Of a stretch of DNA of 64,000 nucleotides, positions 29,600-53,411 are shown one piece after another. The stretch covers positions 1 to 64,000 of the forward strand of contig NZ_JAKLLN010000011.1 in assembly GCF_023150065.1 (NCBI RefSeq). Reading direction: 5' to 3'. The notes under the pieces are model-generated. The model saw nothing but the letters and a program-made list of their open reading frames with translations. It had not been told where the DNA came from and searched no databases. The stretch's first letter is position 1, and every line of letters starts with the position of its first letter. The position numbers and the translations under genes were made by a program. The stretch is from Zoogloea sp. Lineage in GTDB: Bacteria; Pseudomonadota; Gammaproteobacteria; Burkholderiales; Rhodocyclaceae.

Positions 29600-29613
29600 T
29601 TGGGACAGATCAA
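29600..29613 (+). promoter_or_regulatory. Possible FNR/DNR box before norE
   Basis: TTGGGACAGATCAA matches the TTGAT-N4-ATCAA dyad at 8 of 10 positions (right half perfect). Its centre is 41.5 bp before the ATG at 29648. Class II activation would then place transcription start at the start codon itself. Confidence 0.45.
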
Positions 29614-29647
29614 GGCCGGCCGGCCCCACCCCGGCGACACTCCGGAC

Positions 29648-31304: not shown

Positions 31305-31475
31305 CGGCCGCGTCTGCAAACAAGGGTTACGTGCCCTTCGGGCAATAACCATGATACTAAAATGGAATTGACCTTCCGCAGTCCGTAAGCTGCGAAAAGC
31401 CCGGAGTTCCACCAGACTCCCGGGGCACGGGTGATCTGGCGGGACACCTTCCTCAGTATCCTGGAGACGCCCACC

Positions 31476-32327: not shown

Positions 32328-32361
32328 ACTCGACTCCACGCCCGGCCGGATCACCACACGT

Positions 32362-32395
32362 AAAAAGGCCCGGACGGGGAATCCCCGTCCGGGCC
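32362..32395. terminator. Bidirectional terminator between convergent PEP-CTERM genes
   Basis: A 13-bp near-perfect stem GGCCCGGACGGGG/CCCCGTCCGGGCC is preceded by five A. On the minus strand these become the U-tract, ending the 32424-33086 gene. The plus-strand lectin gene also runs into it. Confidence 0.85.
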
Positions 32396-32423
32396 ACTCA
32401 AGCAGTACCGCTCGGGTCTGCGA

Positions 32424-33086: not shown

Positions 33087-33120
33087 GAAGGTCCCCGGCA
33101 ACATCAGGCACGATCGCTGA

Positions 33121-33165
33121 TGCGCAGCAAATGTCAAAAAATGTAATGTGACGTAACGCTGCGCA
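33121..33165 (-). repeat. Long interrupted dyad in the leader of a PEP-CTERM gene
   Basis: TGCGCAGC (33121-33128) and GCTGCGCA (33158-33165) are perfect complements 29 bp apart. Inside lie GTCA (33133-33136) and TGAC (about 33149-33152), a second smaller dyad. If the TACAAT just outside it is a -10 box, the dyad would lie in the 5' untranslated RNA. Confidence 0.55.
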
Positions 33166-33430
33166 TTGTAGGGGGCGGTACCGGGCATCCGAAGCGGCCA
33201 CCAGAAGCCCCCGCGACATCCATCACGGCAGTTTGGTGACGTCGTTCTCGAAGTACCCGAAACCCCTCGAATCCCCCCGGATCCGGCACATCAGGCCGCC
33301 CGCAAGCGCCAGGCGGTCACCCCGACGAGGGAGGGGACCAAAGGTGACATCCGTCGACTTTTCTTACACAGATGCGAAAAAATCACCACTCTTCGCCGGA
33401 AAACCGTTGATTTATAACGACTCTCAATCC

Positions 33431-33446
33431 GGGTTTGCAAATTGCT
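33431..33446 (+). promoter_or_regulatory. Sigma-54-like promoter for a PEP-CTERM gene
   Basis: GGGTTTGCAAATTGCT keeps the invariant GG (-24) and GC (-12) in the right spacing and has TTGCT at the -12 element, although the -24 side TTT differs from CAC. Known PEP-CTERM/exosortase systems use the PrsK-PrsR pair with RpoN. It would leave a leader of about 200 nt. Confidence 0.45.
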
Positions 33447-33658
33447 AGAGAGGAATCGAGCGGCACCGCGGAAGCCGGGAGCGAGGAAAAGATCGCCCGG
33501 GCAGCTGCGCCACCCGCTGCAATCGACGTGTCCCGGAGTCGTGGGCAGTCAGGCCGGAGTCGTGCAGCCCCACCAACTCCCGCCTGCGGATTGTGAAAGT
33601 GAGCCCAGGACGAGCCAGGACGATCCTAAATCGAGTCTGTCACCCAAAAAGGCGCCCC

Positions 33659-34450
33659 ATGATCCGCAAACTCACCCTGCTGGCTCTGGCCAGCACCACG
33701 CTGCTTGCCGCCGTCAATGCCAGCGCTGCCGTCTACACCTTCGGGACCCCGACCCACGCCCTGCCGGCCGTCAGCGGCAATGGGCTTACCGGGCAACTGT
33801 GGACCAACGTCAACCCGAACACCGACACCCTGAGCCAGGCCCAGACCATCATCAACGGCGGGTTTGCGACGGCCAATTTCCGGGCGACGACCGTCGACTT
33901 CCCGAGCGGCCCGGCGGGTACCACATCCACCTCGGCCACCTACAGCTCGGTGCTCGACGCAGTCGCCCAGAGCACGCTGGACAACAGCAGCGTTCTGCCG
34001 GACGACGTGCTCAACACCGTCATGCGCTTCGCGGGCTTCTTCGGCGTCCAGAACGCCGGCGAGGTGTGGACCTTCCGGCTTCCGTCCGACGACGGCAGCG
34101 CGGTGGACATCCAGGGCACACGCATCCTCGATAACGACGGCATTCACAGTTTCGGCGGCCCCACCACCACGGTGGAGTTCACCACCCCCGGCCTGTACGC
34201 CATCAACGTACTGTTCTTCGAGTCCCAGGCCACCGAGTGGGGGCTGGAGTTCCAGGGCGGCCTGAACGGCGCCTCCCCCACCACGGCCTTGACTCCGCGC
34301 CTGTACACGCTGGTGGATTTCGCCACGCCCGACGACGAGCGCCTGGACAGCATCCAGCCCAACGCTGTCCCCGCTCCCGGCAGCCTGTCGCTGATCGGCG
34401 CCGGCCTGCTTGCCGCTCTCGGCTTCCGCAAGCGCAGTTCCCGGCGCTGA
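33659..34450 (+). CDS. PEP-CTERM-type exported protein with PA14-like domain (PAP variant)
   Basis: 263 residues. A signal peptide ends at about NASAAVYTF. A domain at about 70-215 resembles PA14 (MRFAGFFGVQNAGEVWTFRL, DDGSAVDIQGTRILDNDG and TPGLYAINVLFFESQATEWG), a fold that binds carbohydrates. The C-terminal sorting segment is VPAPGSLSLIGAGLLAALGFRKRSSRR (read from about 237), with PAP instead of PEP. The hydrophobic helix and basic tail are intact, so it is probably still an exosortase substrate. The start at 33659 is chosen for the signal peptide. Confidence 0.82.
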   Translation: MIRKLTLLALASTTLLAAVNASAAVYTFGTPTHALPAVSGNGLTGQLWTNVNPNTDTLSQAQTIINGGFATANFRATTVDFPSGPAGTTSTSATYSSVLDAVAQSTLDNSSVLPDDVLNTVMRFAGFFGVQNAGEVWTFRLPSDDGSAVDIQGTRILDNDGIHSFGGPTTTVEFTTPGLYAINVLFFESQATEWGLEFQGGLNGASPTTALTPRLYTLVDFATPDDERLDSIQPNAVPAPGSLSLIGAGLLAALGFRKRSSRR

Positions 34451-38270: not shown

Positions 38271-38322
38271 GCAAAAGCAAACGGCGCGGCAAACCCGGCT
38301 GGAAGGTTTGCGAGCGCCGTTG
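38271..38322 (-). terminator. Conditional terminator / expression platform of the SAH riboswitch
   Basis: On the minus strand the 3' arm of the aptamer (CAACGGCG, from 38322) can pair with CGCCGTT (38286-38280), and inside this GCAAACC (38311-38305) pairs with GGTTTGC (38295-38289). This gives about 15 bp with a small internal loop, followed by TTTGCTTTTGC. The hairpin excludes aptamer folding, so ligand binding should prevent termination and switch metH on. This is inferred from pairing alone. Confidence 0.55.
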
Positions 38323-38376
38323 TGGGTTGCCGAGCCTGGCCCGCTGGATCAGCAGGTCGCAACGCTCCTCGGCAAG
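38308..38376 (-). promoter_or_regulatory. SAH (S-adenosylhomocysteine) riboswitch aptamer
   Basis: Read on the minus strand, the segment begins CCGAGGAGCGTTGCGACC, later has CCAGGCTCGGCAACC and ends CAACGGCGCTC. This is the consensus of the SAH riboswitch. CCGAG pairs with CTCGG and GAGCG with CGCTC, giving the LL-type pseudoknot. In betaproteobacteria this riboswitch stands before ahcY and metH, and high SAH turns expression on. The position directly in the metH leader agrees. Confidence 0.88.
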
Positions 38377-38382
38377 GCCCGG

Positions 38383-38412
38383 ATTTTACGGGGTTTTCGG
38401 GCCGCTTGCCAA
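38383..38412 (-). promoter_or_regulatory. Promoter of the metH riboswitch transcript
   Basis: TTGGCA (38412-38407) and TAAAAT (38388-38383) are spaced by 18 bp on the minus strand. Transcription would start near 38376, right at the 5' edge of the aptamer. The promoter lies two bases after the stop codon of the small gene upstream. Confidence 0.7.
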
Positions 38413-38414
38413 GC

Positions 38415-38666
38415 TCAGGCGGCGGCCCGCAGGGCTCCCTCTGTCAGGGACTCCCGGGCGTCATCCTTCCACCAGCCCAGGGCCGCGTAGTAGCCCTCCC
38501 ACACGCAACCATTGCAGCCCCGGCCGCAGCAGGTGGTGGGCGGCGGCGGCGGATTGCGGTGGGCCACCCCGGCACTCGCCAGCAGGGCGCGGATCGCGGC
38601 GATCTGGGCCTCGGCCTCGTTCAGGTCGGCGGGGCGGCGATCGAAGGGGCTGGCGGCAGTGGTCAT
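38415..38666 (-). CDS. Small oxidoreductase-like (PF09791-type) cysteine protein
   Basis: 83 residues. An N-terminal helix ([20 protein letters not shown]) is followed by [29 protein letters not shown], which carries four cysteines in CC-x3-C-x2-C spacing, the hallmark of the short oxidoreductase-like domain found in bacteria and mitochondria. Function is unknown, and metal or cluster binding is likely. The start at 38666 is chosen for its GGAGACC ribosome site. The ORF could run 25 codons further upstream. Confidence 0.72.
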
Positions 38667-38811
38667 GAACGGTCTCCGGCGGGGGTCGCGAAGATAGCAC
38701 TCGGCGGCCCGCCCGGAAAGCCACTTCATCACACCGAACAAACGCCCTTGTCATTGCCCGGGCATGACATGGCGCTTAAAATCCGGCCCGATCACCCAAC
38801 CGGAGTCCGCA

Positions 38812-40131
38812 GTGCCCCAAGTCCATTCGATCCTCTTCTTCGGCGACATCCTCCCCGGGCACGACGCCATCAGCTGCCGGCGTCAGCTCCAGGTGCTGCT
38901 CAAATGCCCGCCGGAAACCATGGACAGCGTGTTTTCGGGCGGACGGGTGTGCCTGCGCAAGGGGCTGGACGAGGCCGACGCCCGACGCTACCAGACGCGC
39001 CTGGAGGCCATCGGGCTGCGCATCGTGATCGATCCGCCGCTCACCCCCCCGGCCCCTGCCGCCGCCGAGCCTGAGCCCGCCCCTTCCCTTAGACCGCTTC
39101 CACAACAGACCCCGGAACTCGCCCCGCCGCCAGCCCCCCAACCGGCGCCGGAGCCCACCCCCAGGGCCACAGTGCCCGCCCCGGCGGCCGTCGAGCTCAT
39201 CAACTGCCCGGCCTGCGGCGAGGAGCAGCCACGCCGCACCCTGTGCCGCGCCTGCTCCATCGACATGCCCCGTTTCGCCGCCTCCCGGGCCGCACCGCCG
39301 CCCGCCAAGGCGGACCGCCCTGCCGTCACCTACATGCTGACACCCGACGCCCCCTCGCCGGTGCTGGCCGACAGCGGCATTGTCGGCCTGGGCTTCCGGG
39401 GTCGCTTCGGGCGCCGCAACTTCGCGCTTACCGGGCTGCTGACCCTCGGCGGCACCCTGGTCCTGGCCCTCCTCGCCTTCACCCTGGGCATCCCGGGCAT
39501 GCTGATCGGCGGCCTCGGGATGCTCCTGATGTTCATCTACGGCACCCGCAGCACCGTGTTCCGCCTCCACGACCTGGGCCTCAGCGGGTGGTGGACGCTG
39601 GTCACCTGGATCCCCTATCTGGGCGGGGTAGCCGCGCTGCTGCTGCTCGTGGTGCCCGGCCAGAAAGGCAGCAATGCCTGGGGCGAGCCGGCCCGCCCGG
39701 TGTCGGCGGTCGGGCTGCTGGGGGGAATGGCGCTGATCGGTGGCGCCCTCTTCCTCGCCATCAGCATCTTCGGCACCCAACTGCCGTCCATGCCGGAGCT
39801 GCCCGGTGTACCCGGCAACGAAACAGGCAAAGCGGCCTTCACCGAGCGCTACGACGCCAGCCGCGACCGGATCGTCATGTATTCCCTGAGCACCTGCGGC
39901 TTCTGCGCCGAAAAGCGCCAACAGTTCGACCGCATGGGCGTGCGCTATGTCGAGCTCATGATCGACGAAGACCCGGTCGCCGAGGCGCGCCTCAACAGCC
40001 GCCTGCGTGAGGCCGGTCTGGACAGCGGCGCCATCGGCACGCCGATCATCGAGGTCAATGGCACCCTGCTGCCCAACAACCCCGGCTTCAGCGAAATCGG
40101 ACTGCACCTGAGTCGGGCAACGAAGATCTGA
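38812..40131 (+). CDS. Zinc-ribbon / DUF805 membrane / glutaredoxin-like fusion protein
   Basis: 439 residues from a GTG start (with CGGAGTCC upstream). Residues 1-75 form a small alpha/beta domain of unknown type. 76-126 is a Pro-rich linker. 132-148 is a zinc ribbon CPAC-x8-CRAC. 195-325 is a DUF805 membrane domain with about four helices and the motif FRLHDLGLSGWW. 353-439 is a glutaredoxin-like domain with active site STCGFC (Cys362, Cys365), then GTPIIEVNGTLLPNN. The redox domain should lie in the cytoplasm. I know glutaredoxin fused to DUF805 only poorly. Role unknown, possibly membrane thiol homeostasis. Confidence 0.78.
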   Translation: MPQVHSILFFGDILPGHDAISCRRQLQVLLKCPPETMDSVFSGGRVCLRKGLDEADARRYQTRLEAIGLRIVIDPPLTPPAPAAAEPEPAPSLRPLPQQTPELAPPPAPQPAPEPTPRATVPAPAAVELINCPACGEEQPRRTLCRACSIDMPRFAASRAAPPPAKADRPAVTYMLTPDAPSPVLADSGIVGLGFRGRFGRRNFALTGLLTLGGTLVLALLAFTLGIPGMLIGGLGMLLMFIYGTRSTVFRLHDLGLSGWWTLVTWIPYLGGVAALLLLVVPGQKGSNAWGEPARPVSAVGLLGGMALIGGALFLAISIFGTQLPSMPELPGVPGNETGKAAFTERYDASRDRIVMYSLSTCGFCAEKRQQFDRMGVRYVELMIDEDPVAEARLNSRLREAGLDSGAIGTPIIEVNGTLLPNNPGFSEIGLHLSRATKI

Positions 40132-40186
40132 AGCATCAGCCCGGTTGCATGGCAGAATCGGCAGGTCAGCACCCCGGGTGACCAGG

Positions 40187-40801
40187 ATGATCAGCATCTA
40201 CCAGCTCAAGCCCCGCTTCCAGGCGCTGCTCCGGCCCATCGTCGGCCGGCTGGCCGCGGCCGGCATCACGGCCAATCAGGTCACCCTGGCGGCCATGCTG
40301 ATCTCGCTGGTGCTGGGCCTGGGGCTGTTCCTCAACACCGACAGCAGCCGCGCCTTCCTGCTGCTGCCCCTGTGGATGTTCCTGCGCATGGCCTTCAACG
40401 CGGTGGATGGCATGCTGGCGCGGGAGTTCGGCCAGCAGTCCCCCCTCGGCGCCTACTTCAACGAGCTGTCCGACGTACTCTCCGATGCCGCCCTCTACCT
40501 GCCCTTCGTGGCGGTGGCACCCTTCGGCTGGGGCAGCGTCGGAGCGGTGATCTTCCTGTCGGCGGTCTCCGAGATGGCCGGCGCCCTCGGCCCCATGGTC
40601 GGCGCCCCGCGCCAGTACGACGGCCCCATGGGCAAGAGCGACCGGGCCTTCCTGTTCGGCGCCCTCGGCCTGTGGCTGGGCTTGGCCGGCAGCCTGCCCG
40701 ACGCTGCCTTCTGGATCATGCCGGTGGCGGCTCTGGCCATCCTGCTCAACACCTTCAACCGCATCCGCAGCGGTGTCCGCCAGGCCCGCAATCCACACTG
40801 A
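40187..40801 (+). CDS. ynbA: CDP-alcohol phosphatidyltransferase, YnbA-like
   Basis: 204 residues with about six membrane segments. The family motif appears as N-x2-DG-x2-AR-x8-G-x3-N-x3-D (NAVDGMLAREFG to GAYFNELSD), so two of the four usual aspartates are asparagine. It would transfer a phosphatidyl group from CDP-diacylglycerol to an alcohol. The ATG at 40187 has CAGG upstream, and the frame before it is not coding. It is the first gene of an eight-gene head-to-tail block. The gene content matches E. coli ynbABCD, whose product is not known to me. Confidence 0.82.
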   Translation: MISIYQLKPRFQALLRPIVGRLAAAGITANQVTLAAMLISLVLGLGLFLNTDSSRAFLLLPLWMFLRMAFNAVDGMLAREFGQQSPLGAYFNELSDVLSDAALYLPFVAVAPFGWGSVGAVIFLSAVSEMAGALGPMVGAPRQYDGPMGKSDRAFLFGALGLWLGLAGSLPDAAFWIMPVAALAILLNTFNRIRSGVRQARNPH

Positions 40802-40809
40802 GGTCAGCG

Positions 40810-42567
40810 ATGAACACACCCCGCCCGGTCTCCGAACACCATTTCGAAACCCACGACGGGGTGCATCTGTTCTACCGCCACTGGCCCGCCACCGCTCCGC
40901 GCCGGGGTGCCGTGGTGATGTTCCACCGGGGCCACGAACACTCCGGCCGCATCGCCCACCTGGCCGACGAGCTGGACCTGCCCGGTTTCGACTTCTTCGC
41001 CTGGGACGCCCGCGGCCACGGCCACTCCCCGGGGGCCCGGGGCCACTCCCCCAGCTTCGGCACCTCGGTGCGCGACGTGCAGACCTTCGTCGATCACATC
41101 CACACGCACCACGGCATCGCCCACGCCGACATGGCCGTGCTGGCCCAGAGCGTCGGCGCGGTGCTGGTGGCCACCTGGGCCCACGACTACGCCCCGCGGG
41201 TGCGCTGCCTGGTGCTCGCCTCGCCGGCCTTCCAGGTCAAGCTCTACGTTCCCTTCGCCCGCCCGGGCCTGGCCCTGCTCGAAAAGCTGCGCGGCAACTT
41301 CTTCGTCAACAGCTACGTCAAGGCCAAGTTCCTGACCCACGACCCGGCCCGCCAGCGCAGCTACGACAAGGACCCGCTGATCGCCCGGGCCATCTCGGTG
41401 AACATCCTGCTCGGTCTTTACGAGGCCGCCGAGCGGGTCGTGGCCGACGCCCAGGCCATCACCCTGCCCACCCAGCTGCTCATCTCCGGCGCCGACTGGG
41501 TGGTGCATCACGGGCCCCAGCACCGCTTCTTCGACGGGTTGGGCTCGGCGGTCAAGGAGAAGCACGTCCTCGACGGCTTCTACCACGACACCCTCGGCGA
41601 GCAGGACCGAAAGCTCGCCACCGACAAGGCCCGGGACTTCATCCTGCGCCAGTTCGACCACCCGGCCGCTCCGGTGAGCCTGCTCGATGCCGACCAGCAC
41701 GGCGCCACCCGGGACGAGTCCGACGCCCTGACCCGCCCCCTCTCCCCGCTCAGCCCCCGCGGCCTCTACTGGGCCGCCTACCGGGCCAGCATGAAGCTCG
41801 GCGGCCACCTGTCGGCGGGCATCGCCCTGGGCCACCGCACCGGCTTCGACTCGGGCAGCACCCTCGACTACGTCTATCGCGACACCGCCACCGGCAGCGG
41901 CCCCCTGGGCCGGGCCATGGACCGCAACTACCTCGACGCCATCGGCTGGCGCGGCATCCGCCAGCGCAAGCGCCACCTGGAAGAGCTCCTGCGCCTGGCC
42001 CTCGGCCAGCTGCACACCGAGGGGCGCCCCCTGCGGGTGCTGGACATCGCCGCCGGCCACGGCCGCTACGTGCTCGAAGCCCTGACCGAAGCCCCGCGCC
42101 GTCCCGACACCATCCTGCTGCGCGACTTCAGCGACATCAACGTGCGCGATGGCGCCGCCCTGATCCGCGAGAAGGGCCTGGAGGCCATCGCCCGCTTCGA
42201 GAAGGGCGACGCCTTCGACCGGGCCTCGGTGGCCGGCGTGTCGCCCCGCCCCACCATCGGCATCGTCTCCGGCCTCTACGAGCTGTTTCCCGACAACACC
42301 ATGGTGAGCCGCTCCCTGGCCGGCATGGCCGACGCCATCGAGCCCGGCGGCCTGCTGATCTACACCGGCCAGCCCTGGCACCCCCAGCTCGAACTCATCG
42401 CCCGGGCCCTCACCAGCCACCGGGGGGGCCAGGCCTGGGTGATGCGCCGACGCAGCCAGGCCGAGATGGACCAGCTGGTGGACGCCGCCGGCTTCGACAA
42501 GCTCGAACAGCGCATCGACGAATGGGGCATCTTCACCGTGTCCCTGGCCCGGCGCCGCGCCCCATGA
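40810..42567 (+). CDS. ynbC: Bifunctional alpha/beta hydrolase - SAM methyltransferase, YnbC-like
   Basis: 585 residues. The N-terminal half (1-310) is a monoacylglycerol-lipase-like hydrolase: DFFAWDARGHGHSPG, nucleophile elbow AQSVG (Ser about 114, with Ala where Gly is usual), and a late catalytic His in LDGFYHDTLGE. The C-terminal half (about 330-585) is a class I methyltransferase with SAM motif VLDIAAGHGRYVLEAL and a final Tyr/Gly-rich segment LLIYTGQPWHPQLE. Length equals that of E. coli YnbC as I recall it. It could deacylate a lipid and methylate a headgroup. It overlaps the next gene by ATGA. Confidence 0.85.
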   Translation: MNTPRPVSEHHFETHDGVHLFYRHWPATAPRRGAVVMFHRGHEHSGRIAHLADELDLPGFDFFAWDARGHGHSPGARGHSPSFGTSVRDVQTFVDHIHTHHGIAHADMAVLAQSVGAVLVATWAHDYAPRVRCLVLASPAFQVKLYVPFARPGLALLEKLRGNFFVNSYVKAKFLTHDPARQRSYDKDPLIARAISVNILLGLYEAAERVVADAQAITLPTQLLISGADWVVHHGPQHRFFDGLGSAVKEKHVLDGFYHDTLGEQDRKLATDKARDFILRQFDHPAAPVSLLDADQHGATRDESDALTRPLSPLSPRGLYWAAYRASMKLGGHLSAGIALGHRTGFDSGSTLDYVYRDTATGSGPLGRAMDRNYLDAIGWRGIRQRKRHLEELLRLALGQLHTEGRPLRVLDIAAGHGRYVLEALTEAPRRPDTILLRDFSDINVRDGAALIREKGLEAIARFEKGDAFDRASVAGVSPRPTIGIVSGLYELFPDNTMVSRSLAGMADAIEPGGLLIYTGQPWHPQLELIARALTSHRGGQAWVMRRRSQAEMDQLVDAAGFDKLEQRIDEWGIFTVSLARRRAP

Positions 42568-43901
42568 ACAGCCGGGCCGCCCCCGCCACCGCCATTCCCT
42601 GGCAGCGGGGCGTCGCCTGGCTGCTCTTTCTGGGGCCCTTTTTCTTCCTCAGCTACGGCTTCGCCAACACCATGGCGGCCCGCTGGCAGGTGAGCGACAG
42701 CCTGGTGTATGGCTGGGAGCGGCACATCCCCTTTCTGCCCTGGACCATCCTGCCCTACTGGTCCATCGACCTGTTCTACGGCTTGTCCTTCCTGCTGTGC
42801 CGCACTGCCCTGCAGGTAGACCGCCACGCCCTGCGCCTGCTCACCGCCCAGCTCGTATCGGTGGCCTGCTTCCTGGCCTTTCCCCTGCGCTTCAGCTTCG
42901 CCCGCCCCGAATCCGACGGGCTTTTCGGCGCCCTCTTCGACGCCCTGGCCGGGTTCGATCTGCCCTACAACCAGGCGCCCTCCCTGCACATCAGCCTGCT
43001 CGTCATCCTGTGGGTGCGTTTTGCCGCCGCCACCCGCGGTCCCCTGCGCGGGCTGGTGGATGCCTGGGCCGCCCTGATCGCCGTATCGGTGCTCACCACC
43101 TACCAGCACCATTTCATCGATCTTCCCAGCGGCGCCCTGGTGGGCCTGCTGTGCCTGTGGCTGTGGCCGGATGAAGGCCCGACGCCCTTCTCTGCCGCCC
43201 GCTGGACGCACAGCCCCGAGCGGCGCCGGCTGGCCGGCCATTACCTGGTCGGCGCCCTGGCCGCGGCCGGCCTGGGCATCCTGCTCGGGGGTGGAGGGCT
43301 GGTGCTCATCTGGCTGGGCATCGCCCTGGCCCTGGTGGCCCTCAACTACGCCTTCATCGGCCCCGCCGGTTTCCAGAAGCACGCCGGCCGCCACAGCCTC
43401 GGCGCGGCCCTGCTGCTGGCTCCCTACACCCTCGGTGCCTGGCTCAATGCGCGCCTGTGGACCCGCCGCGCCCCCGCCCCCGGCCTGATCGCCGATGGCG
43501 TGTGGCTGGGCCGCCTGCCCGACAGCCAGGCGATGCAGGCCGGCGGCTTCCGCGCCCTCGTCGACCTCACCGCCGAACTGCCCGCCCCCTGGGGCGACTG
43601 GGCCTACACCCAGCTCGCCTGGCTCGATCTGGTGCCGCCCGACAGCAGCCAGCTGGAGCAAGCCGCCGCCGCCATCGAGCGCCTGCGCCGGCACGGACCG
43701 GTGCTGGTGTGCTGCGCCCTGGGCTACTCGCGCAGCGCCAGCGCAGTGGCCGCCTGGCTGCTGGCCACCGGCCGGGCAGCCTCGCCGGAGGCTGCGCTGG
43801 CCATCCTGCAGCGTTCCCGGCCCCGGGTGGTGCTGGGCCCGCGGCACCGCCAGGCCCTGGCCCGGGTCATCCCGCCGGCGGAGCTCAGCGGTGGCGCCTG
43901 A
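42564..43901 (+). CDS. ynbD: PAP2 / dual-specificity phosphatase fusion, YnbD-like
   Basis: 445 residues. The N-terminal membrane part (about 10-290) has a PAP2-type active site with NQAPSLHISLLVIL and TTYQHHFIDLPSGALVG (PSLH in place of PSGH). The C-terminal cytosolic domain (about 310-445) is a dual-specificity phosphatase with VLVCCALGYSRSASAVAAW, the CX5R catalytic loop. Such phosphatases include PTPMT1, which removes phosphate from phosphatidylglycerol phosphate, so a lipid-phosphate role is plausible. It is overlapped by ynbC at its start and by the next small gene at its end. Confidence 0.85.
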   Translation: MNSRAAPATAIPWQRGVAWLLFLGPFFFLSYGFANTMAARWQVSDSLVYGWERHIPFLPWTILPYWSIDLFYGLSFLLCRTALQVDRHALRLLTAQLVSVACFLAFPLRFSFARPESDGLFGALFDALAGFDLPYNQAPSLHISLLVILWVRFAAATRGPLRGLVDAWAALIAVSVLTTYQHHFIDLPSGALVGLLCLWLWPDEGPTPFSAARWTHSPERRRLAGHYLVGALAAAGLGILLGGGGLVLIWLGIALALVALNYAFIGPAGFQKHAGRHSLGAALLLAPYTLGAWLNARLWTRRAPAPGLIADGVWLGRLPDSQAMQAGGFRALVDLTAELPAPWGDWAYTQLAWLDLVPPDSSQLEQAAAAIERLRRHGPVLVCCALGYSRSASAVAAWLLATGRAASPEAALAILQRSRPRVVLGPRHRQALARVIPPAELSGGA

Positions 43902-44364
43902 TACCCCTGACATTCCCTGCACCCGCGCCGCAGCAGCCCGCGCGGCCCTCACCGCCGCCACCCTGGCCCAGGGACGCGACCTGCATCTGCTCAGCCTGTG
44001 CCTGCTGCTGCCCGCCCTCGCCGCCCTGTTGCTGGCCCCCGGCGGCCCGGCCCGCAGCGCCTGCCTCACCCTGAGCCTGGTGGCCGGCACCGTGCAGGTC
44101 TACCATGCCCTGCGCTGCGGCCTCGATGCAGCGCTGTTCGCCCACTGGGCCACGTGCTGGAGCCGGCCCACGGCAAGCGATGCCGACGTCGATGCCGACC
44201 TGCAGGCCTTCGACCATGCCCTAGCTGAGGACTTCGGGCGCGCCCCCCTGACGCCGCGCCCCCTGGCCGAGCGGGTCCGCGGCGCCCTCGGCCTGCTGCG
44301 CCGCCAGGCCCTTGCCCTGGGCATTCAGGGCCTCACCTTGCTCGCCGCCATGGCCGCGGGCTGA
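43891..44364 (+). CDS. Small membrane protein of the ynb-like operon
   Basis: 157 residues from a GTG overlapping the end of ynbD by 11 bp. I do not recognise a family. Two N-terminal helices (about 30-65: LLSLCLLLPALAALLLAPGG and LTLSLVAGTVQVYHALRCG) form a hairpin. A polar region with DADVDADLQAFDHALAEDF follows, then a third hydrophobic stretch at the end (ALGIQGLTLLAAMAAG). The gene lies between lipid enzymes, so it may be a scaffold. The start is uncertain. Confidence 0.6.
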   Translation: MAPDTPDIPCTRAAAARAALTAATLAQGRDLHLLSLCLLLPALAALLLAPGGPARSACLTLSLVAGTVQVYHALRCGLDAALFAHWATCWSRPTASDADVDADLQAFDHALAEDFGRAPLTPRPLAERVRGALGLLRRQALALGIQGLTLLAAMAAG

Positions 44365-44378
44365 ACCCGGACAACCCG

Positions 44379-45002
44379 ATGTTTGTCGACCGCCTCCTCG
44401 CCTCCGCCCTGTGCGGCTTTGCCCGCGCCCTCACCGGCGTCCGTGCCCTGTGGCTGGGCAGCGAACCCGACGCCCGCCCCCGGGTGTACTTCGCCAACCA
44501 CCGCAGCCACGGGGATTTCGTGCTGATCTGGGCGTCCCTGCCACCGCCCCTGCGCCGCCGCACCCGGCCGGTGGCCGGCGCCGATTACTGGCTCACCACA
44601 AGCCTGCGCCGCTTCCTGATCAACCGGGTCTTCCGCGGGGTGTGCATCGACCGCCGCCCCGGGCGCAACGGCCCCAACCCGGTTGAGCAGATGGGCGAAG
44701 CCCTGGGCGCCGGTGAATCCCTGATCCTCTTTCCCGAAGGCACCCGCAACATGGGCGACGGCCTGCTGCCCTTCAAGAGCGGCCTGCACCACCTGGCCAA
44801 GGCCCACCCGGAGGCCGAGCTGATCCCCGTGTGGATCGAGAACCTGGGCCGGGTGATGCCCAAGGGCAGCCTGATCCCGGTACCCCTGCTGTGCACCCTG
44901 AGCTTCGGCCCACCCCTGAGCCCGGTGGACGGGGAGAGCCGCGAGGCCTTCCTGACCCGCGCCCGTACCGCCCTCCTCGACCTCGCCCCCCCCGCCGACT
45001 GA
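44379..45002 (+). CDS. 1-acyl-glycerol-3-phosphate acyltransferase-like protein (PlsC family)
   Basis: 207 residues. The acyltransferase HX4D motif is in FANHRSHGDFVLIWA, and the substrate motif FPEGTRNMGDG follows, both diagnostic for the PlsC family. FRGVCIDRR between them is a typical third block. It is shorter than PlsC (about 240) and has one N-terminal hydrophobic segment. It would acylate a lysophosphatidic acid-like substrate or remodel a lysophospholipid. It starts 14 nt after the small membrane protein. Confidence 0.85.
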   Translation: MFVDRLLASALCGFARALTGVRALWLGSEPDARPRVYFANHRSHGDFVLIWASLPPPLRRRTRPVAGADYWLTTSLRRFLINRVFRGVCIDRRPGRNGPNPVEQMGEALGAGESLILFPEGTRNMGDGLLPFKSGLHHLAKAHPEAELIPVWIENLGRVMPKGSLIPVPLLCTLSFGPPLSPVDGESREAFLTRARTALLDLAPPAD

Positions 45003-45017
45003 ACCCGGGTTGAACCC

Positions 45018-45962
45018 ATGAACGCATCCCACGACCTCATCACCGTCTTCGGCGGCATCTTCGGCCTGCTGGCCGTGTTCAGCCTGATCGGCGCCGGGCT
45101 CAAATACCGGGTCGCCCGGGGTCAGCCCCACGGCGTCATCGACAACCTCAACGCCCGCATCAAGGCCTGGTGGGCCATGATCGCCCTCATCGGCGCGGCC
45201 ATCTGGATCGGCCCCTGGGGCGTGATCGCCCTGTTCGCCTTCATCTCCTTCCAGTGCCTGCGGGAGTTCATCTCCCTCACCCACACCCGGCTCGGCGACC
45301 ACCGGGCCCTGCTGTGGAGCTTCTTCGTCTTCCTGCCGGCCCAGTACTGGCTCATCGCCACCCACTGGTACGGCCTGTTCTCCATCCTGATCCCGGTCTA
45401 TGCCTTCCTGCTGCTGCCCATCTCCTCGTCCCTGGGGGCCGACACCACGCGCTTCCTGGAGCGGGCGGCCAAGGTGCAATGGGGGCTGATGATCTGCGTG
45501 TACTGCCTGTCCCACGTGCCCGCCCTGCTCACCCTGGACATCGCCGGTTACGCCGGGCGCAACATGCTGCTGATCGTCTTCCTGATCCTCACCGTGCAGT
45601 CCAGCGACGTCTTCCAGTACGTGTGGGGCAAGCTCATCGGCAAGCGCAAGGTGTCGCCGGCCATCTCGCCCTCCAAGACCGTCGAGGGCCTGGTGGGCGG
45701 CGTGCTCACCTCCACCGCCGTCGGCGCCGCCCTGTGGTGGATCACCCCCTTCACGCCCCTGGAGGCCGGCCTGATCGCCCTGGTCATCAACGTGATGGGC
45801 TTCTTCGGCGGCTTCGTGCTGTCCGCCATCAAGCGCGACCGGGGGGTGAAGGACTGGGGCGCCATGATCGAAGGCCACGGCGGCATGCTCGACCGGGTGG
45901 ATTCGATCAGCTTCTCCGCCCCCATCTTCTTCCACATCGTGCGCTACTGGTGGGTGGCATGA
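45018..45962 (+). CDS. ynbB: Phosphatidate cytidylyltransferase, YnbB/CdsA-like
   Basis: 314 residues with about eight membrane helices. The CdsA signature near the C-terminus is SAIKRDRGVKDWGAMIEGHG followed by GMLDRVDS. The substrate region SDVFQYVWGKLIGKRKVSPAISPSKT precedes it. It makes CDP-diacylglycerol from phosphatidate and CTP. As the window cannot show whether another cdsA exists, calling it YnbB rather than the housekeeping enzyme rests on its neighbours. It overlaps the kinase gene by ATGA. Confidence 0.86.
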   Translation: MNASHDLITVFGGIFGLLAVFSLIGAGLKYRVARGQPHGVIDNLNARIKAWWAMIALIGAAIWIGPWGVIALFAFISFQCLREFISLTHTRLGDHRALLWSFFVFLPAQYWLIATHWYGLFSILIPVYAFLLLPISSSLGADTTRFLERAAKVQWGLMICVYCLSHVPALLTLDIAGYAGRNMLLIVFLILTVQSSDVFQYVWGKLIGKRKVSPAISPSKTVEGLVGGVLTSTAVGAALWWITPFTPLEAGLIALVINVMGFFGGFVLSAIKRDRGVKDWGAMIEGHGGMLDRVDSISFSAPIFFHIVRYWWVA

Positions 45963-47377
45963 GCACGGCCCCACTGCCCGACTGGCTGGCGCGCTTCCAG
46001 GCCCGTCTCGGCGCCGAGCTCATCGAAACCCACATCTCCTGGCTGCTCCTCGCCGACGGCTTCGTCTGGAAGCTGAAGAAGCCCCTGAGCCTGCCCTTCC
46101 TCGATTACGCCACCGCCGAGCAGCGCCGCTTCTGCTGCCATGAAGAGCTGCGCCTCAATCGGCGTTTCGCCCCCGGACTCTACCTGGGCCTGGAAGAGGT
46201 GGACGACAGCGGCGAGTGCGCCGTGAAGATGCGGCGCTTTGCCGAGAGCCAGCGCCTGGATCACGTCTGCGACCGGGGCGGGCTCGGCCCCGACGCCCTC
46301 ACCAGCCTGGCCCGCAGCCTCCACGCCTTCCACCGGGGCGCCGCCGTGGCCGATGCCCGCAGTTCCTGGGGCGAGCCCGATGCGGTCCTGGCCCCTGCCC
46401 TCGACAATTTCGCCACCCTGCTCACCCTGCAACCCGGCGAGGCCCGCCGCCTGGCGCGCCTGCAGGCCTGGACGCAGGCCGAATTCGACCGCCAGCGCAG
46501 CCTGTTTGCCGCCCGCAAGGCCGGTGGCCACATCCGCGAATGCCACGGTGATCTGCACCTGGGCAACCTGGTGCTCCTCGACGGGCAGGTGGTGCCCTTC
46601 GACTGCATCGAGTTCAACCCCGCCCTGCGCTGGATCGACGTGGCCTCCGAACTCGCCTTCACCTGGATGGACCTCCTCGACCACCACCGGCCCGACCTGG
46701 CGGCCTGGCTCCTGAGCGCCTGGCTGGAGGAATCGGGGGACGTGAGCGGCGTGCCGCTGCTGCGCTTCTATGCGGTGTACAAGGCCATGGTGCGGGCCAA
46801 GGTGGCCGCCCTGTCGGGCAACCCACAGGGCGTGGCAGACTACCTGGAGCTGGCCGAGCGCCTCACCACGCCCCCCGCAGCACGCCTGATCATCACCCAC
46901 GGCCTGTCCGGCTCCGGCAAGACGGTGCGCAGCGCCGCCCTGCTGATGGCCGACCCTGCCGCAACCACCCTGCGCCTGCGCTCCGACGTGGAACGCAAGC
47001 GCCTCCACGGCCTGCCGGCCCTGGCCACCAGCCGGCGCGACACCCGGCGCGGCGGCATCTACACGCCTGAAGCCACCCGGCTCACCTTCGCCTACCTGGC
47101 AGAAGCGGCCGGGCACATGCTCGATGCCGGCTGGTCGGTGATCGTCGACGCGGCTTTCCTGAAGCGTACCGAGCGGGATGACTTCCGGGCCATCGCCCTC
47201 CGTCATGGCGCGGCCTTCGCCATCCTGGCCTGCTCCGCACCAGAAGACGAACTGCGCCGGCGCCTGGAGGCACGCCGCGGCGACGCATCCGAGGCCACGG
47301 TCGCGGTGCTCGAGCAGCAACTGGGCTGGATGGAGCCTCTGGCACCGGACGAGCTGAACTACGTGCTGCCGCCCTGA
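45959..47377 (+). CDS. Bifunctional APH-fold kinase and P-loop ATPase
   Basis: 472 residues. The N-terminal part (1-300) has the aminoglycoside/choline-kinase fold: WLLLADGFVWKLKKPLSLPFLDY, Brenner-type catalytic HGDLHLGNLVLLDGQ and downstream PFDCIEFN (DFG-like). The C-terminal part (about 305-472) has Walker A THGLSGSGKTVRS and AAA-like nucleotide-kinase features (VIVDAAFLKRTERDDF). Similar fusions are often called AAA plus phosphotransferase proteins. The true substrate is unknown. Its 4-nt overlap with ynbB suggests a joint function. It is the last gene of the operon. Confidence 0.8.
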   Translation: MSTAPLPDWLARFQARLGAELIETHISWLLLADGFVWKLKKPLSLPFLDYATAEQRRFCCHEELRLNRRFAPGLYLGLEEVDDSGECAVKMRRFAESQRLDHVCDRGGLGPDALTSLARSLHAFHRGAAVADARSSWGEPDAVLAPALDNFATLLTLQPGEARRLARLQAWTQAEFDRQRSLFAARKAGGHIRECHGDLHLGNLVLLDGQVVPFDCIEFNPALRWIDVASELAFTWMDLLDHHRPDLAAWLLSAWLEESGDVSGVPLLRFYAVYKAMVRAKVAALSGNPQGVADYLELAERLTTPPAARLIITHGLSGSGKTVRSAALLMADPAATTLRLRSDVERKRLHGLPALATSRRDTRRGGIYTPEATRLTFAYLAEAAGHMLDAGWSVIVDAAFLKRTERDDFRAIALRHGAAFAILACSAPEDELRRRLEARRGDASEATVAVLEQQLGWMEPLAPDELNYVLPP

Positions 47378-47490
47378 GAGCGCAATCGAGCGCCCGCAGG
47401 CACTGCATGAGGGTGGCGGAGCAGGAAAGCCGCGCCCCCCGAGAGCAGGATGCACCCGAAACTAGGTTACCAACACCTGTCCACGCACCC

Positions 47491-47814
47491 TCAACGCAGG
47501 GAGCCGACGTAGCGCTGGGTCGGGTGGGTGGCCTCCGGGCGGGCGGTGCGCAGGCGCTCCAGCAGGCCCGGCCCGCTACGCTCGGTAGCGGGGCTGGAGG
47601 TGGCCGCAGGCGTGTCCAGCTCCATTGCCAGGCGCAGGCGGGCACTCAGTTCGGCGAGCTCGGGGTTGCCGGTGGCCACGGCCAGGCGCACCACCTCGCG
47701 GGCGTAGTCCTTGTTCGCGCGCATGTATTCCACATCGGTGATGCGGTTGCTGACCCGCCGCATCAACAGGTGGATCCGGCCAAGCAGGCCGTAGATGACG
47801 GAATCAGATTCCAT
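47491..47814 (-). CDS. Helical protein of unknown function downstream of amt
   Basis: 107 residues. I do not recognise it. It is almost all helical (SVIYGLLGRIHLLMRRVSN, DYAREVVRLAVATGNPELAELSARLRLAMEL) with a polar Ser/Pro/Arg-rich C-terminus. No signal peptide or membrane segment is seen. The start has a GGGAGCCTCC ribosome site, and it begins 51 nt after amt on the same strand. It may be co-transcribed with the ammonium transporter. Confidence 0.55.
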   Translation of the reverse strand: MESDSVIYGLLGRIHLLMRRVSNRITDVEYMRANKDYAREVVRLAVATGNPELAELSARLRLAMELDTPAATSSPATERSGPGLLERLRTARPEATHPTQRYVGSLR

Positions 47815-47865
47815 GGAGGCTCCCTTGATTTCAGATGACCGGGTTTGGTGTGGCGCCCAGGGCGC

Positions 47866-49155
47866 TCAGGCGATGGCCTCGCCGTGCTCGCTCAGATCAA
47901 GCCCGTCGCGCTCGGTGTGCTCGCCGACCCGCAGGCCCACCAGCCGGTCGATCACCATCAGCACGACCAGGGTCATGCCGCCGCTGTAGACGAGGGTGGC
48001 GCAGATGCCAGCGAGCTGCACCAGGATGTCGCCACGCAGGCCACCGATGGCCGGGGTGGCCAGCCAGCCGGTGAGCAGGGCTCCGATCATGCCGCCGACA
48101 CCATGGATGCCGAAGGCGTCGAGCGCATCGTCGCAGCGCAATACGCGCTTCAACACGGTAGCACCGAGATAACAGCCCACCCCTGCCAGGGCGCCGATCA
48201 GCAGGGCGGAAGTGGGGGTGACGAAGCCCGAGGCGGGTGTCACTGCCACCAACCCTCCCACGGCGCCCGAGACCAGGCCGAGGGCACTGGGGCGGCCGCG
48301 GACCAGCCACTCTGCCCCCATCCACGCCACTGCCGCCGTGGCCGCCGCCAGCTGGGTGGCCAGCATCGCCATGCCTGCCCGGGCGTCGGCCGCCAGCCCT
48401 GAGCCGGCGTTGAAGCCGAACCAGCCCACCCACAGCAGGGCCGCCCCGGTGAGAGTCAGGGCCAGGTTGTAGGGCGTCATGGGCTGACGTCCGTAGCCGC
48501 TGCGGGGCCCGACGTAGAGGGCACACACCAGCCCGGCCACGCCCGCATTGACATGCACCACCGTGCCGCCGGCGTAGTCCAGTGCACCCAGCAGCGCCAG
48601 CCAGCCGTCCGGGGCCCATACCCAGTGGGCCACCGGGGCGTACACCAGCACCGACCACAGGGCTGCAAACAGCAGTACGGCCGGGAACTTCATGCGCTCG
48701 GCAAAGGCCCCCGGCACCAGCGCGGTGGTGATGATGGCAAAGCTGAGCTGGAACATCGCGAACACCGATTCGGGCACTCCACCGCTCAGGGAGTCCAGGC
48801 TCAGCCCGTCGAGAAACAGGCGGTCCAGCCCGCCCACGAAGGCCGAGCCCGGGCGCATCGCCAGGCTGTAGCCGGCGACGCACCAGGTGAGGGTCACCAC
48901 CGCGGCGATGGCGATGGTCTGGGTCATGGTGGCGAGCACGTTCTTGCGTCTGACCATACCGCCGTAGAACAGGGCCAGGCCGGGCAGGGTCATCAACAGC
49001 ACCAGGGCGGTGGCCACCAGCATCCAGGCGGTGTGGCCGGAGTCCGCCCGGACGGCGGCCACACCATCCGCCAGGGCTGCGACAGGCAGGCACAGAGCGC
49101 CCAGACACAGGGCGGGCGCGACGCGAAGGGAACCGGAACGGCGGCTTCCAGGCAT
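47866..49155 (-). CDS. amt: Ammonium transporter (Amt/MEP/Rh family)
   Basis: 429 residues: signal peptide (1-24, ending AALADG), then eleven membrane helices. The signature region is ALDYAGGTVVHVNAGVAGLV. The phenylalanine gate and twin-histidine pore residues are in FAMFQLSFAIITTALVPGAFAERM, VVHVNAGV and FGIHGVGGMIG. It conducts ammonia/ammonium. No glnK lies next to it, unlike most amt genes. The start at 49155 is chosen for its signal peptide. Another ATG at 49179 adds eight residues. Upstream lie a sigma-54 promoter and an NtrC box. Confidence 0.9.
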   Translation of the reverse strand: MPGSRRSGSLRVAPALCLGALCLPVAALADGVAAVRADSGHTAWMLVATALVLLMTLPGLALFYGGMVRRKNVLATMTQTIAIAAVVTLTWCVAGYSLAMRPGSAFVGGLDRLFLDGLSLDSLSGGVPESVFAMFQLSFAIITTALVPGAFAERMKFPAVLLFAALWSVLVYAPVAHWVWAPDGWLALLGALDYAGGTVVHVNAGVAGLVCALYVGPRSGYGRQPMTPYNLALTLTGAALLWVGWFGFNAGSGLAADARAGMAMLATQLAAATAAVAWMGAEWLVRGRPSALGLVSGAVGGLVAVTPASGFVTPTSALLIGALAGVGCYLGATVLKRVLRCDDALDAFGIHGVGGMIGALLTGWLATPAIGGLRGDILVQLAGICATLVYSGGMTLVVLMVIDRLVGLRVGEHTERDGLDLSEHGEAIA

Positions 49156-49410: not shown

Positions 49411-50817
<1,407 letters not shown>

Positions 50818-51243
50818 TCAGCCTTCGATGTTGGGCGGCCAGTTGGCTGTGTTGATCTCGGACGAGTACTTCAGGAACTCGACGAGGTCATTCAGCTGCT
50901 GCTCGGTCAGATGGAAGTTGGGCATCTGACGGCGACCCGGTGCGCCGGTGGGCTGGGACTGGATCCAGGCCTTGATGAACTCAGGCCCGCGCCGTTTGTA
51001 GACGTTGCCCAGTTCCGGGGCGAAGTAGGCGCCCTCACCCATCAGGGTGTGGCAGCCGATGCAGTTGTTGACCTCCCACACCTTCTTGCCGGCGATGACG
51101 GACGGCGTGAGGTTGGCGCGGTTGTCCCGCTTGGGAATGGCCTGCATCGAATCGAAGGTCAGCGCGAGGAACAGGAGCGCAAAGAAAACGGTGCCCCCAT
51201 AGAAGATGTTTCGCGCCATGGATTTTGTGAATGTCCCGCTCAT
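50818..51243 (-). CDS. norC: Nitric oxide reductase small subunit NorC (c-type cytochrome)
   Basis: 141 residues. The membrane anchor is at about 10-30 (NIFYGGTVFFALLFLALTF). A c-type heme domain has NNCIGCHTLMGEGAYFAPEL, with Met as sixth ligand in RQMPNFHLT. It brings electrons from cytochrome c to NorB. The start at 51243 has GGGAGG upstream. Codons before it lie in the promoter region and are rejected. An FNR/DNR-like dyad is found 80 bp upstream. Confidence 0.96.
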   Translation of the reverse strand: MSGTFTKSMARNIFYGGTVFFALLFLALTFDSMQAIPKRDNRANLTPSVIAGKKVWEVNNCIGCHTLMGEGAYFAPELGNVYKRRGPEFIKAWIQSQPTGAPGRRQMPNFHLTEQQLNDLVEFLKYSSEINTANWPPNIEG

Positions 51244-51316
51244 GGAACCTCCCTGGATGGCTTCGCTGCACGGCGCAGCTTGGGGCGGATGTTCCGGATC
51301 GGTGGGGGTGACGTCC

Positions 51317-51330
51317 TTGACTGTGGTCAA
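51317..51330 (-). promoter_or_regulatory. FNR/DNR-type box before norCB
   Basis: TTGAC-CACA-GTCAA (minus strand) is a perfect dyad and agrees with TTGAT-N4-ATCAA at 8 of 10 positions. Its centre at 51323.5 predicts, by class II spacing, a start near 51282 with GAACAT as a -10-like element. Confidence 0.65.
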
Positions 51331-51371
51331 GGTGGCCGGACGGGGCCGATCGACGCGGGCCCGGCGGGCCC

Positions 51372-53411
51372 TCAAGCAGCGCTGGCGGCCTTCTTGAAGC
51401 AGTGCAGGAGCGTGGCGAAAAGCACTTCCGGATCAACGGGTTTGGCGACGAAATCGTTCATTCCCGCCTCGAGGCAGCGGGCCCGGTCCTCGACGAAGGC
51501 ATTGGCGGTCATGGCAACGATGGGCACACGCTTGCCGCCTGGCAGCTCCCGGATCCGCCGGGTGGCCTCGAGACCATCCATGTTGGGCATCTGCACATCC
51601 ATCAGGATCAGGTCGAAGGGCTGCCGGGCCAGCAGCGCCAGCGCCTGGACGCCATCCTCGGCGCACACCACGACCTGCCCGACATCCAGCAACATCATCG
51701 AGGCGATTTCCCGGTTGATGATCTCGTCCTCGACCAGCAGGATCCGACGCCCGGGATAGTCCCGGGCAAGGGTGTCCTCGGCCTGGCCGGGCGGTGATGA
51801 GGGGAGCTCAGGCCGGATGGCGGCCTGGCGCCGCAGCCGCGCGGTAAACCAGAAGGTGCTGCCCTGCCCCACCACGCTGTCTGCCCCGGCCGTCCCGCCC
51901 ATGCGTTCGGCCAGTTTGTGGGTGATGGCCAGGCCCAGGCCGGTACCACCGTGCTTGCGGGTCAGGGTGTTGTCAGCCTGCTCGAAGGCCGTGAACAGCC
52001 GCGGCAGGACCTCCGTCGGAATGCCGCCCCCCGTGTCCCGCACCTCGAAGCGCAGCAGGGCGCTGTCGGCCGTCAGCTCTTCCAGGGCCACGCGCAGGCT
52101 CACCCTGCCGGCAGCGGTGAACTTGACGGCATTGGCGCCGTAGTTGAGCAATGCCTGCTGCACCGCGGTCGAGTCACCGAGGAGGTCGTCCGGCAGCGCA
52201 TCCATCTCGGCCTCCAGCCGCAGCCCCTTGGCCTGGGCGCGGGCGTGCAGCATCGACAGGACATTGTTGAGGATGCTGCCCACCTGGATCGGGGCTTCCG
52301 CCAGCACGAACTTGCCGGCCTCGATCTTCGACAGTTCCAGCACCGCGTTGATGATGTTGAGCAGGTGCTCACCGGCATCTTCGAGCTTGTCGAGCTGTTC
52401 CCGCTGGCGCTCGCTCAGCCCGCCCCGGCGGATGAGATAGGCCATCCCGGTGATGGCATTGAGCGGGGTCCGGATCTCGTGGCTCATGTTGGCCAGGAAG
52501 GCGCTCTTGGCCACGCTGGCGGCCTCGGCGGCTTCCTTGGCCCGGGACAGCTCGGCGGTGCGTGCTTCGACCAGCTGCTCCAGGCTGTCCCGGTGGCGGG
52601 CCAGCTCATCCTGGGCGGCCTTGGAGGCGGTGATGTCGCGAGTGATGGAGAGCAGGCCGGGAACGCCGTTGATCATCATCGGTGAGACCGAGAAGGTGCC
52701 CCAGAAAATCTCCCCGCCCTTCTTGCGGAAACGCGCCTCCAGCTGCAGGCGGGTCTGGCTGTTGCGCAGCTTCTCACTGAACGCCTTGCGGTCTTCCGGA
52801 TTGGCCCAGATGCCCAGCTCGAGGGAGCTGTGGCCGATGATCTCGTCCCGGGCATAGCCGGTGATATCGACGAAGGCCTGATTGACATCGATGTACACCC
52901 CGTCGGCCAGGGTGGTGATGGCAACCGCGTCGAGGGTGGTCTGGAAGGCCGTACGGTAGCGCTGCTCGCTGTCGGCCTGCGCACGCTGGGACTGGATGAT
53001 GTCGGAGACGTCGCGGAAGTACCAGGCGCGCCCCCGGAAGGCACCGTCGGGGCCACCCAGGGCGGTGGTATGACGCCGCAGGGTGCGGCCATCACGCAAC
53101 TGGATGTCGCTCACGTCGTCCAGCTGAAGGTCGGCATACAAGGCTGCCACCCGAGTGGCAAAGGCCTCCGGATCGGATACCCGGGCCAGGGCCTTGTCGA
53201 TCAGGCTGGCCTCGTCGGTACCGTAAAGGGACGCCAGCGCCCCTTCTGGCCGGGGCAGGCCCCACACGGAGAAGAAGCGCTCATTCACCGAGACGAGCTT
53301 GCGCTCGCGGTCCACCACGAGAATGCCGTCGGGCACGCCGTTGAGGATGGCCCGCTGCAGCGAGGCCTGCAGGTCACCCCGCCCGTTCTCCTCGATATCC
53401 ATCTCAACCAT
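51372..53411 (-). CDS. PAS-PAS hybrid sensor histidine kinase with C-terminal receiver
   Basis: 679 residues, without membrane helices. PAS 1 is at about 20-135 and PAS 2 at 150-262 ([21 protein letters not shown], ending [10 protein letters not shown]). A coiled coil is at 265-300. HisKA has [18 protein letters not shown] (His311). HATPase has [18 protein letters not shown]. The receiver at about 550-675 has [12 protein letters not shown], acceptor [13 protein letters not shown] and Lys in FVAKPVDPE. The start is at 53411, and 53402 is equally possible. The position between napC and norCB suggests it senses a nitrogen-oxide or redox cue. No other partner is in view. Confidence 0.88.

What the first reader, a model, noticed from the sequence alone, without database searches (positions are those of the whole stretch)
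40187..47377. ynb-like phospholipid operon expanded with acyltransferase and kinase
Seven genes in one orientation, mostly overlapping or within 16 nt, give a possible complete path: PlsC-like acyltransferase, CdsA-like synthase, CDP-alcohol transferase, lipid-phosphate phosphatase, hydrolase-methyltransferase, plus a choline-kinase-fold protein. The content matches E. coli ynbABCD (function unknown to me), with extra genes. I infer a dedicated pathway that builds or remodels a minor phospholipid, maybe one with a methylated headgroup.
Basis: partly seen in the sequence, partly recalled or inferred. Interest (0 to 1): 0.82.

Follow-up and report, generated by a model that had tools for sequence, protein, structure and literature searches.

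The report
Zoogloea copy of Arc1/Ynb lipid operon
This is a six-gene set that probably builds a special membrane lipid; relatives of it help Pseudomonas survive attack by rival bacteria and sit unexplained in E. coli, its lipid product is still unknown, and the seventh gene, a kinase, is only a neighbour.

Summary
The seven genes exist as described. Six of them (A-C-D-E-P-B, 40187-45962) are a widespread module: 75 of 80 named loci keep the order A-C-D-(E)-P-B. By gene count, predicted functions and published annotation it corresponds to arc1A-F (PA2541-36) of Pseudomonas aeruginosa, a defence cluster against type VI secretion attack (PMC8926400); no P. aeruginosa sequence was compared here. 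E. coli ynbABCD lacks the acyltransferase and gene E, so the window is not 'ynb expanded'. The kinase (45959-47377) is in 23 of 23 genomes of the genus, 12 of them without the module, and is judged a resident neighbour. Least expected: the CDP-alcohol transferase A has Asn for the first and third Asp of the family's metal-binding signature in 103 of 104 relatives; 49 of 49 non-Ynb control proteins have Asp. It keeps two phosphate-binding Arg of PIP synthases. Best model: phosphatidic acid, CDP-diacylglycerol, phosphatidyl-X-phosphate, phosphatidyl-X, then finishing by a lipase/methyltransferase. Product and role in Zoogloea are inferred.

The parts
40187..40801 (+). A: CDP-alcohol phosphotransferase (YnbA/Arc1A type), Asn at positions D1 (N71) and D3 (N92) of the signature
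40810..42567 (+). C: monoacylglycerol-lipase-like hydrolase fused to a methyltransferase (YnbC type)
42564..43901 (+). D: PAP2-like membrane domain plus dual-specificity phosphatase domain (YnbD type)
43891..44364 (+). E: 157-residue helical protein of no known family, recurrent after D
44379..45002 (+). P: PlsC-like acyltransferase with HX4D and PEGTR motifs
45018..45962 (+). B: second CdsA-like CDP-diacylglycerol synthase (YnbB type) with the family signature
45959..47377 (+). K: APH-like/AAA_33 kinase, adjacent resident gene, judged not part of the module

Best explanation
Region 40187-45962 is a Zoogloea copy of the Arc1/Ynb module: a self-contained membrane pathway, separate from the housekeeping one, that makes a minor phospholipid protecting the envelope, probably during attack by other bacteria. 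Proposed route: P acylates lysophosphatidic acid to phosphatidic acid; B makes CDP-diacylglycerol; A joins it to a phosphorylated alcohol other than inositol phosphate, giving phosphatidyl-X-phosphate; the DSP domain of D removes the phosphate; C finishes or recycles the lipid by trimming an acyl chain and/or methylating; E is a membrane accessory. Shown here: gene content, order, conservation, catalytic motifs, independence of the kinase. From papers: antagonism defence by arc1A-F in P. aeruginosa. Inferred: every reaction, their order, the product and the role in Zoogloea.
For: Order A-C-D-(E)-P-B in 75 of 80 named loci, many of them Pseudomonas. Arc1 in P. aeruginosa: six genes, five of them predicted for phospholipid metabolism, defence phenotype (PMC8926400); PA2536 annotated phosphatidate cytidylyltransferase and PA2537 acyltransferase, fitting B and P at the 3' end. 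Motifs of P in 94 of 94 (HX4D) and 93 of 94 (PEGTR), of B in 95 of 101. A: fold closest to PIP synthases; R153 and R192, aligned with the phosphate-binding R155 and R195 of the M. tuberculosis PIP synthase, invariant in 67 of 67. DSP motif in 95 of 106 D proteins. C hydrolase half nearest to monoglyceride lipases. Presence or absence as a unit in the genus; plasmid-borne copies.
Against: No enzyme was assayed and no lipid is known. A lacks two of four metal-binding Asp, so it may not be an ordinary transferase. Arc1 in P. aeruginosa could not be tied to one effector. The P. aeruginosa control route is not seen here: no CsrA family match in the genome, no A.GGA motif in the 12 Zoogloea rows printed. 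T6SS co-occurrence is weak: TssC in 9 of 14 with and 5 of 16 without the module. Related genomes of the genus do without the module (12 of 23).
Confidence: 0.6

Rival explanations
1. Damage repair rather than a new lipid: C degrades lysophospholipids or monoacylglycerol left by phospholipases, and P, B, A and D rebuild ordinary phosphatidylglycerol from the pieces.
For: C's hydrolase half is nearest to monoglyceride lipases and weakly matches lysophospholipase L2 below cut-off; four Arc1 products resemble phosphatidylglycerol synthesis enzymes.
Against: The methyltransferase half has no role in it. A is nearer to PIP than to PGP synthases. In P. aeruginosa the Arc1 defect was not relieved by inactivating single B. 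thailandensis effectors, two phospholipases among those present.
Confidence: 0.18
2. A is not a transferase but a substrate-binding or regulatory protein of the transferase fold, and the module only supplies CDP-diacylglycerol and remodels lipids.
For: Two of four metal-ligand Asp replaced in 103 of 104.
Against: D2, D4 (the presumed base), the Gly/Ala residues and both phosphate-binding Arg stay invariant, unusual for a dead enzyme.
Confidence: 0.1
3. Backup for a pyrophosphate-linked glycolipid (MPIase-like): B supplies CDP-diacylglycerol for GlcNAc-PP-diacylglycerol and the other genes process that glycolipid.
For: Overproduced E. coli YnbB raised MPIase (PMC6362211 passages).
Against: Deletion of ynbB did not change MPIase significantly, and ynbB was not needed for phosphoglyceride-linked ECA (PMC8609368 passages); it leaves A, C and D unexplained.
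Confidence: 0.06
4. A seven-gene pathway in which kinase K makes the phosphorylated acceptor for A.
For: 4-nt overlap with B; B followed by K in 9 of 9 same-genus module loci on contigs that reach it.
Against: K in 23 of 23 genomes of the genus, 12 of them without gene C; no module gene between metH and K in 7 of 9 module-less loci read; no K hit in 76 of 80 named loci, six of which end too early to tell, nor in 8 of 8 loci outside the genus.
Confidence: 0.06

Closest known systems
arc1A-F (PA2541-36), antagonism resistance cluster 1 of Pseudomonas aeruginosa (PMC8926400)
   Same: Six genes, five predicted for phospholipid metabolism; cytidylyltransferase and acyltransferase at the 3' end; same six-gene order in the other Pseudomonas loci seen
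   Different: Gac/Rsm control not found here; no direct sequence comparison with P. aeruginosa was possible; defence role untested in Zoogloea
E. coli K-12 ynbABCD
   Same: Homologues of A, B, C and D, 39-58 % identical, same Asn signature in YnbA
   Different: Order A-B-C-D; no adjacent acyltransferase, no gene E
Phosphatidylinositol-phosphate synthases (CDP-alcohol phosphotransferase family)
   Same: Fold (TM 0.63-0.76 by query length), D2 and D4, two phosphate-binding Arg
   Different: D1 and D3 are Asn; the position of the Arg reported as conserved in inositol-phosphate users is V, I, A, L or M

Membership tests
Arc1 (arc1A-F) | Six-gene set: CDP-alcohol transferase, hydrolase-methyltransferase, phosphatase, small protein, acyltransferase, CdsA-like, in one operon | tested here: met
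   compared with Pseudomonas loci and with the published description, not with P. aeruginosa sequence
Arc1 (arc1A-F) | Control by Gac/Rsm (RsmA site at the first gene) | tested here: not met
   No CsrA/RsmA family match in the genome, 97.85 % complete; no A.GGA motif in 12 Zoogloea rows printed. Gac proteins reported absent outside gamma-proteobacteria (PMC11888443 passages). This concerns regulation; the gene set itself is met
Arc1 (arc1A-F) | Defence against T6SS attack | not testable with these tools
   needs competition assays
ynbABCD | Homologues of all four genes, clustered | tested here: met
CDP-alcohol phosphotransferase family | Fold and membership of the PF01066 profile | tested here: met
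CDP-alcohol phosphotransferase family | Full signature with four Asp (D1-D4) | tested here: not met
   D1 and D3 are Asn in 103 of 104 and 67 of 67; so a divergent member, activity open
Phosphatidylinositol-phosphate synthase | Arg after D4 reported for inositol-phosphate users | tested here: not met
   V97 in the window; V 58, I 5, A 2, L 1, M 1 of 67; criterion from PMC6506517 passages
MPIase biosynthesis | Needed for the MPIase level | not testable with these tools
   E. coli ynbB deletion had no significant effect (PMC6362211 passages)

The most novel reading that the evidence does not exclude
Gene A founds a subfamily of CDP-alcohol phosphotransferases with a rebuilt metal site (Asn for two of four Asp, with invariant E93, E129 and D152 as candidate substitutes) that makes a so far undescribed phosphatidyl-X-phosphate. 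The dephosphorylated and then methylated or trimmed lipid is the protective product of Arc1, of E. coli ynbABCD and of the plasmid-borne copies alike.
Probability: 0.33. Interest if true: 0.72.

Novelty: new member of a known kind. Interest (0 to 1): 0.45.

Why it matters
I found no settled function for E. coli ynbABCD in the papers searched, though ynbC is in 4559 of 5426 complete E. coli genomes. Linking it to arc1A-F gives it a testable role (survival under bacterial attack), and the family-wide Asn substitutions name one enzyme to assay first. If the module makes a new lipid, it would be an envelope defence lipid carried by chromosomes and plasmids.

Tried and rejected
Kinase as pathway member: rejected. 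MPIase backup: kept as a weak rival. RsmA/CsrA control in Zoogloea: not supported. T6SS co-occurrence: TssC in 9 of 14 genomes with the module and 5 of 16 without (30 of the 36 genus and family genomes were given, six left out); no significance test was run and the genomes are related. Known anti-phage family: no PADLOC match at E 0.001 for any of the seven proteins. Arc3A family (DUF2339) in this genome: none. Gene E: Pfam scan of 72 members gave only scattered matches, at most 3 members for one family, best E 0.0018; one solved chain at E 2.4; its fold could not be searched. Trees of K (23 rows) and metH (16 rows) each ask for three changes of module presence; gain and loss are not told apart. 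Promoter and terminator scan of 38300-47900 showed no site at 40187 or after 47377. E in the Citrobacter plasmid: only a 6-bit match, not counted.

The gene E profile was built from tblastn-found E genes (58, the window's added) of the same loci, so the 93 of 101 is partly circular. The phosphatase motif was missing by my first pattern in 15 of 103 D proteins and by a looser one in 11 of 106: five cut by contig ends, L190 truncated, L117 short, four full-length (L131, L191, L103, L104). B signature missing in 6 of 101, C nucleophile and C SAM motif each missing in 2 of 108. Twenty of the 51 controls were picked by hand from lower-scoring rows.

Full report
What is there. Seven genes on the + strand at 40187-47377 are real and closely packed (families). 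A is a CDP-alcohol phosphotransferase, C a hydrolase fused to a methyltransferase, D a PAP2-like plus dual-specificity phosphatase, E an unknown 157-residue protein, P a PlsC-like acyltransferase, B a CdsA-like synthase, K an APH-like/AAA_33 kinase. A, B, C and D are 45, 39, 58 and 40 % identical to E. coli YnbA, YnbB, YnbC and YnbD. The genome's genus includes contigs that the named collection lists as Zoogloea (equal contig lengths). It holds a second CdsA and two other CDP-alcohol transferases with ordinary signatures, so this set is not the only, housekeeping pathway.

What belongs together. In the 80 named loci kept from a scan with gene C, 75 show A-C-D-P-B in this order on one strand, 45 of them with E recognised by tblastn; four break off at a contig end in or after D, and one, also cut in D, reads B-P-A-C-D. 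A profile search found an E-like gene after D in 93 of 101 loci whose D frame ends in a stop. So the six-gene set is the usual form among these loci. E. coli K-12 has A-B-C-D with no acyltransferase or E next to them. A Citrobacter plasmid with IncF replicons has A-B-P-C-D followed by a 136-residue gene with only a marginal match to E, and a 19-kb Burkholderia ambifaria plasmid has A-C-D-E on one strand and P and B on the other. The reading 'ynb expanded' is therefore the wrong way round.

The kinase is a neighbour. A search with K found it in 30 of 36 genomes, among them 23 of 23 of the genus, partial in two, while gene C is in 11 of those 23. Nine of the 12 module-less genomes were read around K. 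In seven, metH and K follow each other with 0.55-1.7 kb between and no module gene (two of the seven hold the glutaredoxin/DUF805 gene there); in one, other genes lie between; in one the contig begins near K. In the named loci K follows B in four of 80, all Zoogloea. The 4-nt overlap with B may mean co-transcription.

Known counterpart. P. aeruginosa PA2541-36 was named arc1A-F, antagonism resistance cluster 1. Of that paper (PMC8926400) I saw the outline, sections 5 and 6 and passages. It states that five of the six genes are predicted for phospholipid biosynthesis or metabolism, four with homology to phosphatidylglycerol synthesis enzymes; that the operon is under Gac/Rsm control; that it contributes to survival against the T6SS of Burkholderia thailandensis; and that no single-effector mutation tested relieved the Arc1 defect. 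PA2536 is listed as a probable phosphatidate cytidylyltransferase (PMC8190622 passage) and PA2537 as a probable acyltransferase (PMC2246019 passages), which fits B and P. PA2541 is cited as a target with a single known RsmA site (PMC4066749 passage). P. aeruginosa was not among the loci returned, so the match rests on gene count, annotation and the order in other Pseudomonas. The word-start term 'ynb' has no occurrence in the main text of the Arc paper, and the listings of my paper searches showed no paper that joins ynbABCD with Arc1; they cover the open library only, and I saw mostly listings.

Other hints from E. coli. YnbB overproduction raised MPIase but its deletion did not change it significantly (PMC6362211 passages); ynbB was not needed for phosphoglyceride-linked ECA (PMC8609368 passages). 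A ynbC insertion was among mutants with raised polyphosphate in one strain background, while the Keio deletion was not (PMC2435150 passages). ynbC is one line in a table of mutated genes of a persistence study (PMC13313352 passage). None settles the function.

The odd enzyme. CDP-alcohol phosphotransferases are described by the signature D1xxD2GxxAR...GxxxD3xxxD4; the Asp residues bind metal and D4 is the presumed base (PMC4634129 and PMC6506517 passages). In A and its relatives D1 and D3 are Asn: 103 of 104 proteins (the other, L117, shows Asn at both places but departs before D4), and 67 of 67 in an alignment that includes E. coli YnbA and plasmid copies. As control, 51 loci of PF01066 (two of this genome, 29 best hits, 20 picked by hand from lower-scoring rows, from 40 genomes of the phylum) gave 47 with Asp at all four places, two that my pattern missed but with Asp at both places by eye, and two with the Asn pattern. 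Those two are YnbA-type: one lies in a full A-C-D-P-B cluster, the other beside B and P alone. So Asp stands in 49 of 49 others. The model of A is confident (mean pLDDT 93.8) and nearest to PIP synthases, TM 0.63-0.76 by query length, with AF2299 at 0.69-0.71 and PGP synthase at 0.48-0.55. Residues aligned with the two Arg that bind the phosphate of inositol phosphate are invariant, whereas the place of the Arg reported as conserved in inositol-phosphate users holds V in 58 of 67, I in 5, A in 2, L in 1, M in 1. I infer a phosphorylated acceptor other than inositol phosphate.

Mechanism. P and B give CDP-diacylglycerol; A gives phosphatidyl-X-phosphate; D, whose C-terminal part resembles dual-specificity phosphatases, removes the phosphate. 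That a DSP-type enzyme does such a step elsewhere (PTPMT1) is recalled, from no call. C, with a half like monoacylglycerol lipases and a methyltransferase half, trims and/or methylates. E is modelled as all-helical (mean pLDDT 92.9) and by its hydrophobic stretches is probably in the membrane. All reactions are inferred.

Distribution and setting. Gene C is in 17 of 60 relatives and, at E below 1e-80, in 10 of 369 genomes drawn across the class, this one included. In plasmid records 36 of 72,556 match, 29 over at least 80 % of the query. ynbC is in 4559 of 5426 complete E. coli genomes; the plasmid form matches three E. coli genomes over 73-75 % of its length. Control differs from P. aeruginosa: no CsrA family match in this genome and no A.GGA motif in the 100 bases before A in the 12 Zoogloea rows printed (10 genomes), while 54 of 104 rows in all have one within 40 bases of the start. 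TssC is present in this genome; 9 of 14 module-bearing and 5 of 16 module-less genomes have it, which establishes no link.

Verdict. What stays open and worth testing is the lipid and the altered active site of A.

Noticed in passing
38764-40131: A glutaredoxin plus DUF805 gene lies 55 nt before A; in other module-bearing Zoogloea loci it is only about 32-80 % identical while its neighbours are far more alike, and it is not recognised in some.
   Followed up: partly
L242 6779-8858: A genome of the same phylum has only A, B and P side by side, with the Asn signature in A and no C or D hit in 18 kb; perhaps the minimal core of the pathway.
   Followed up: partly
L190, L192: IncF-type plasmids of E. 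coli and Citrobacter carry the module; the E. coli copy lies some 6 kb from a colicin M gene and is broken in A and D.
   Followed up: partly
29588-31304 and 49411-51375: Genes that by eye look like nitric-oxide reductase parts (NorE- and NorQ-like on one side, NorB- and NorC-like on the other) flank the region some 20 kb apart (translations; names recalled, no family search).
   Followed up: no
31431-34450: Three reading frames end in PEP-CTERM-like tails (VPEPGSLLL..., VPEPASMAL..., VPAPGSLSL...) (translations; motif name recalled).
   Followed up: no
whole genome G000: No CsrA family match was found in this 97.85 % complete genome.
   Followed up: no
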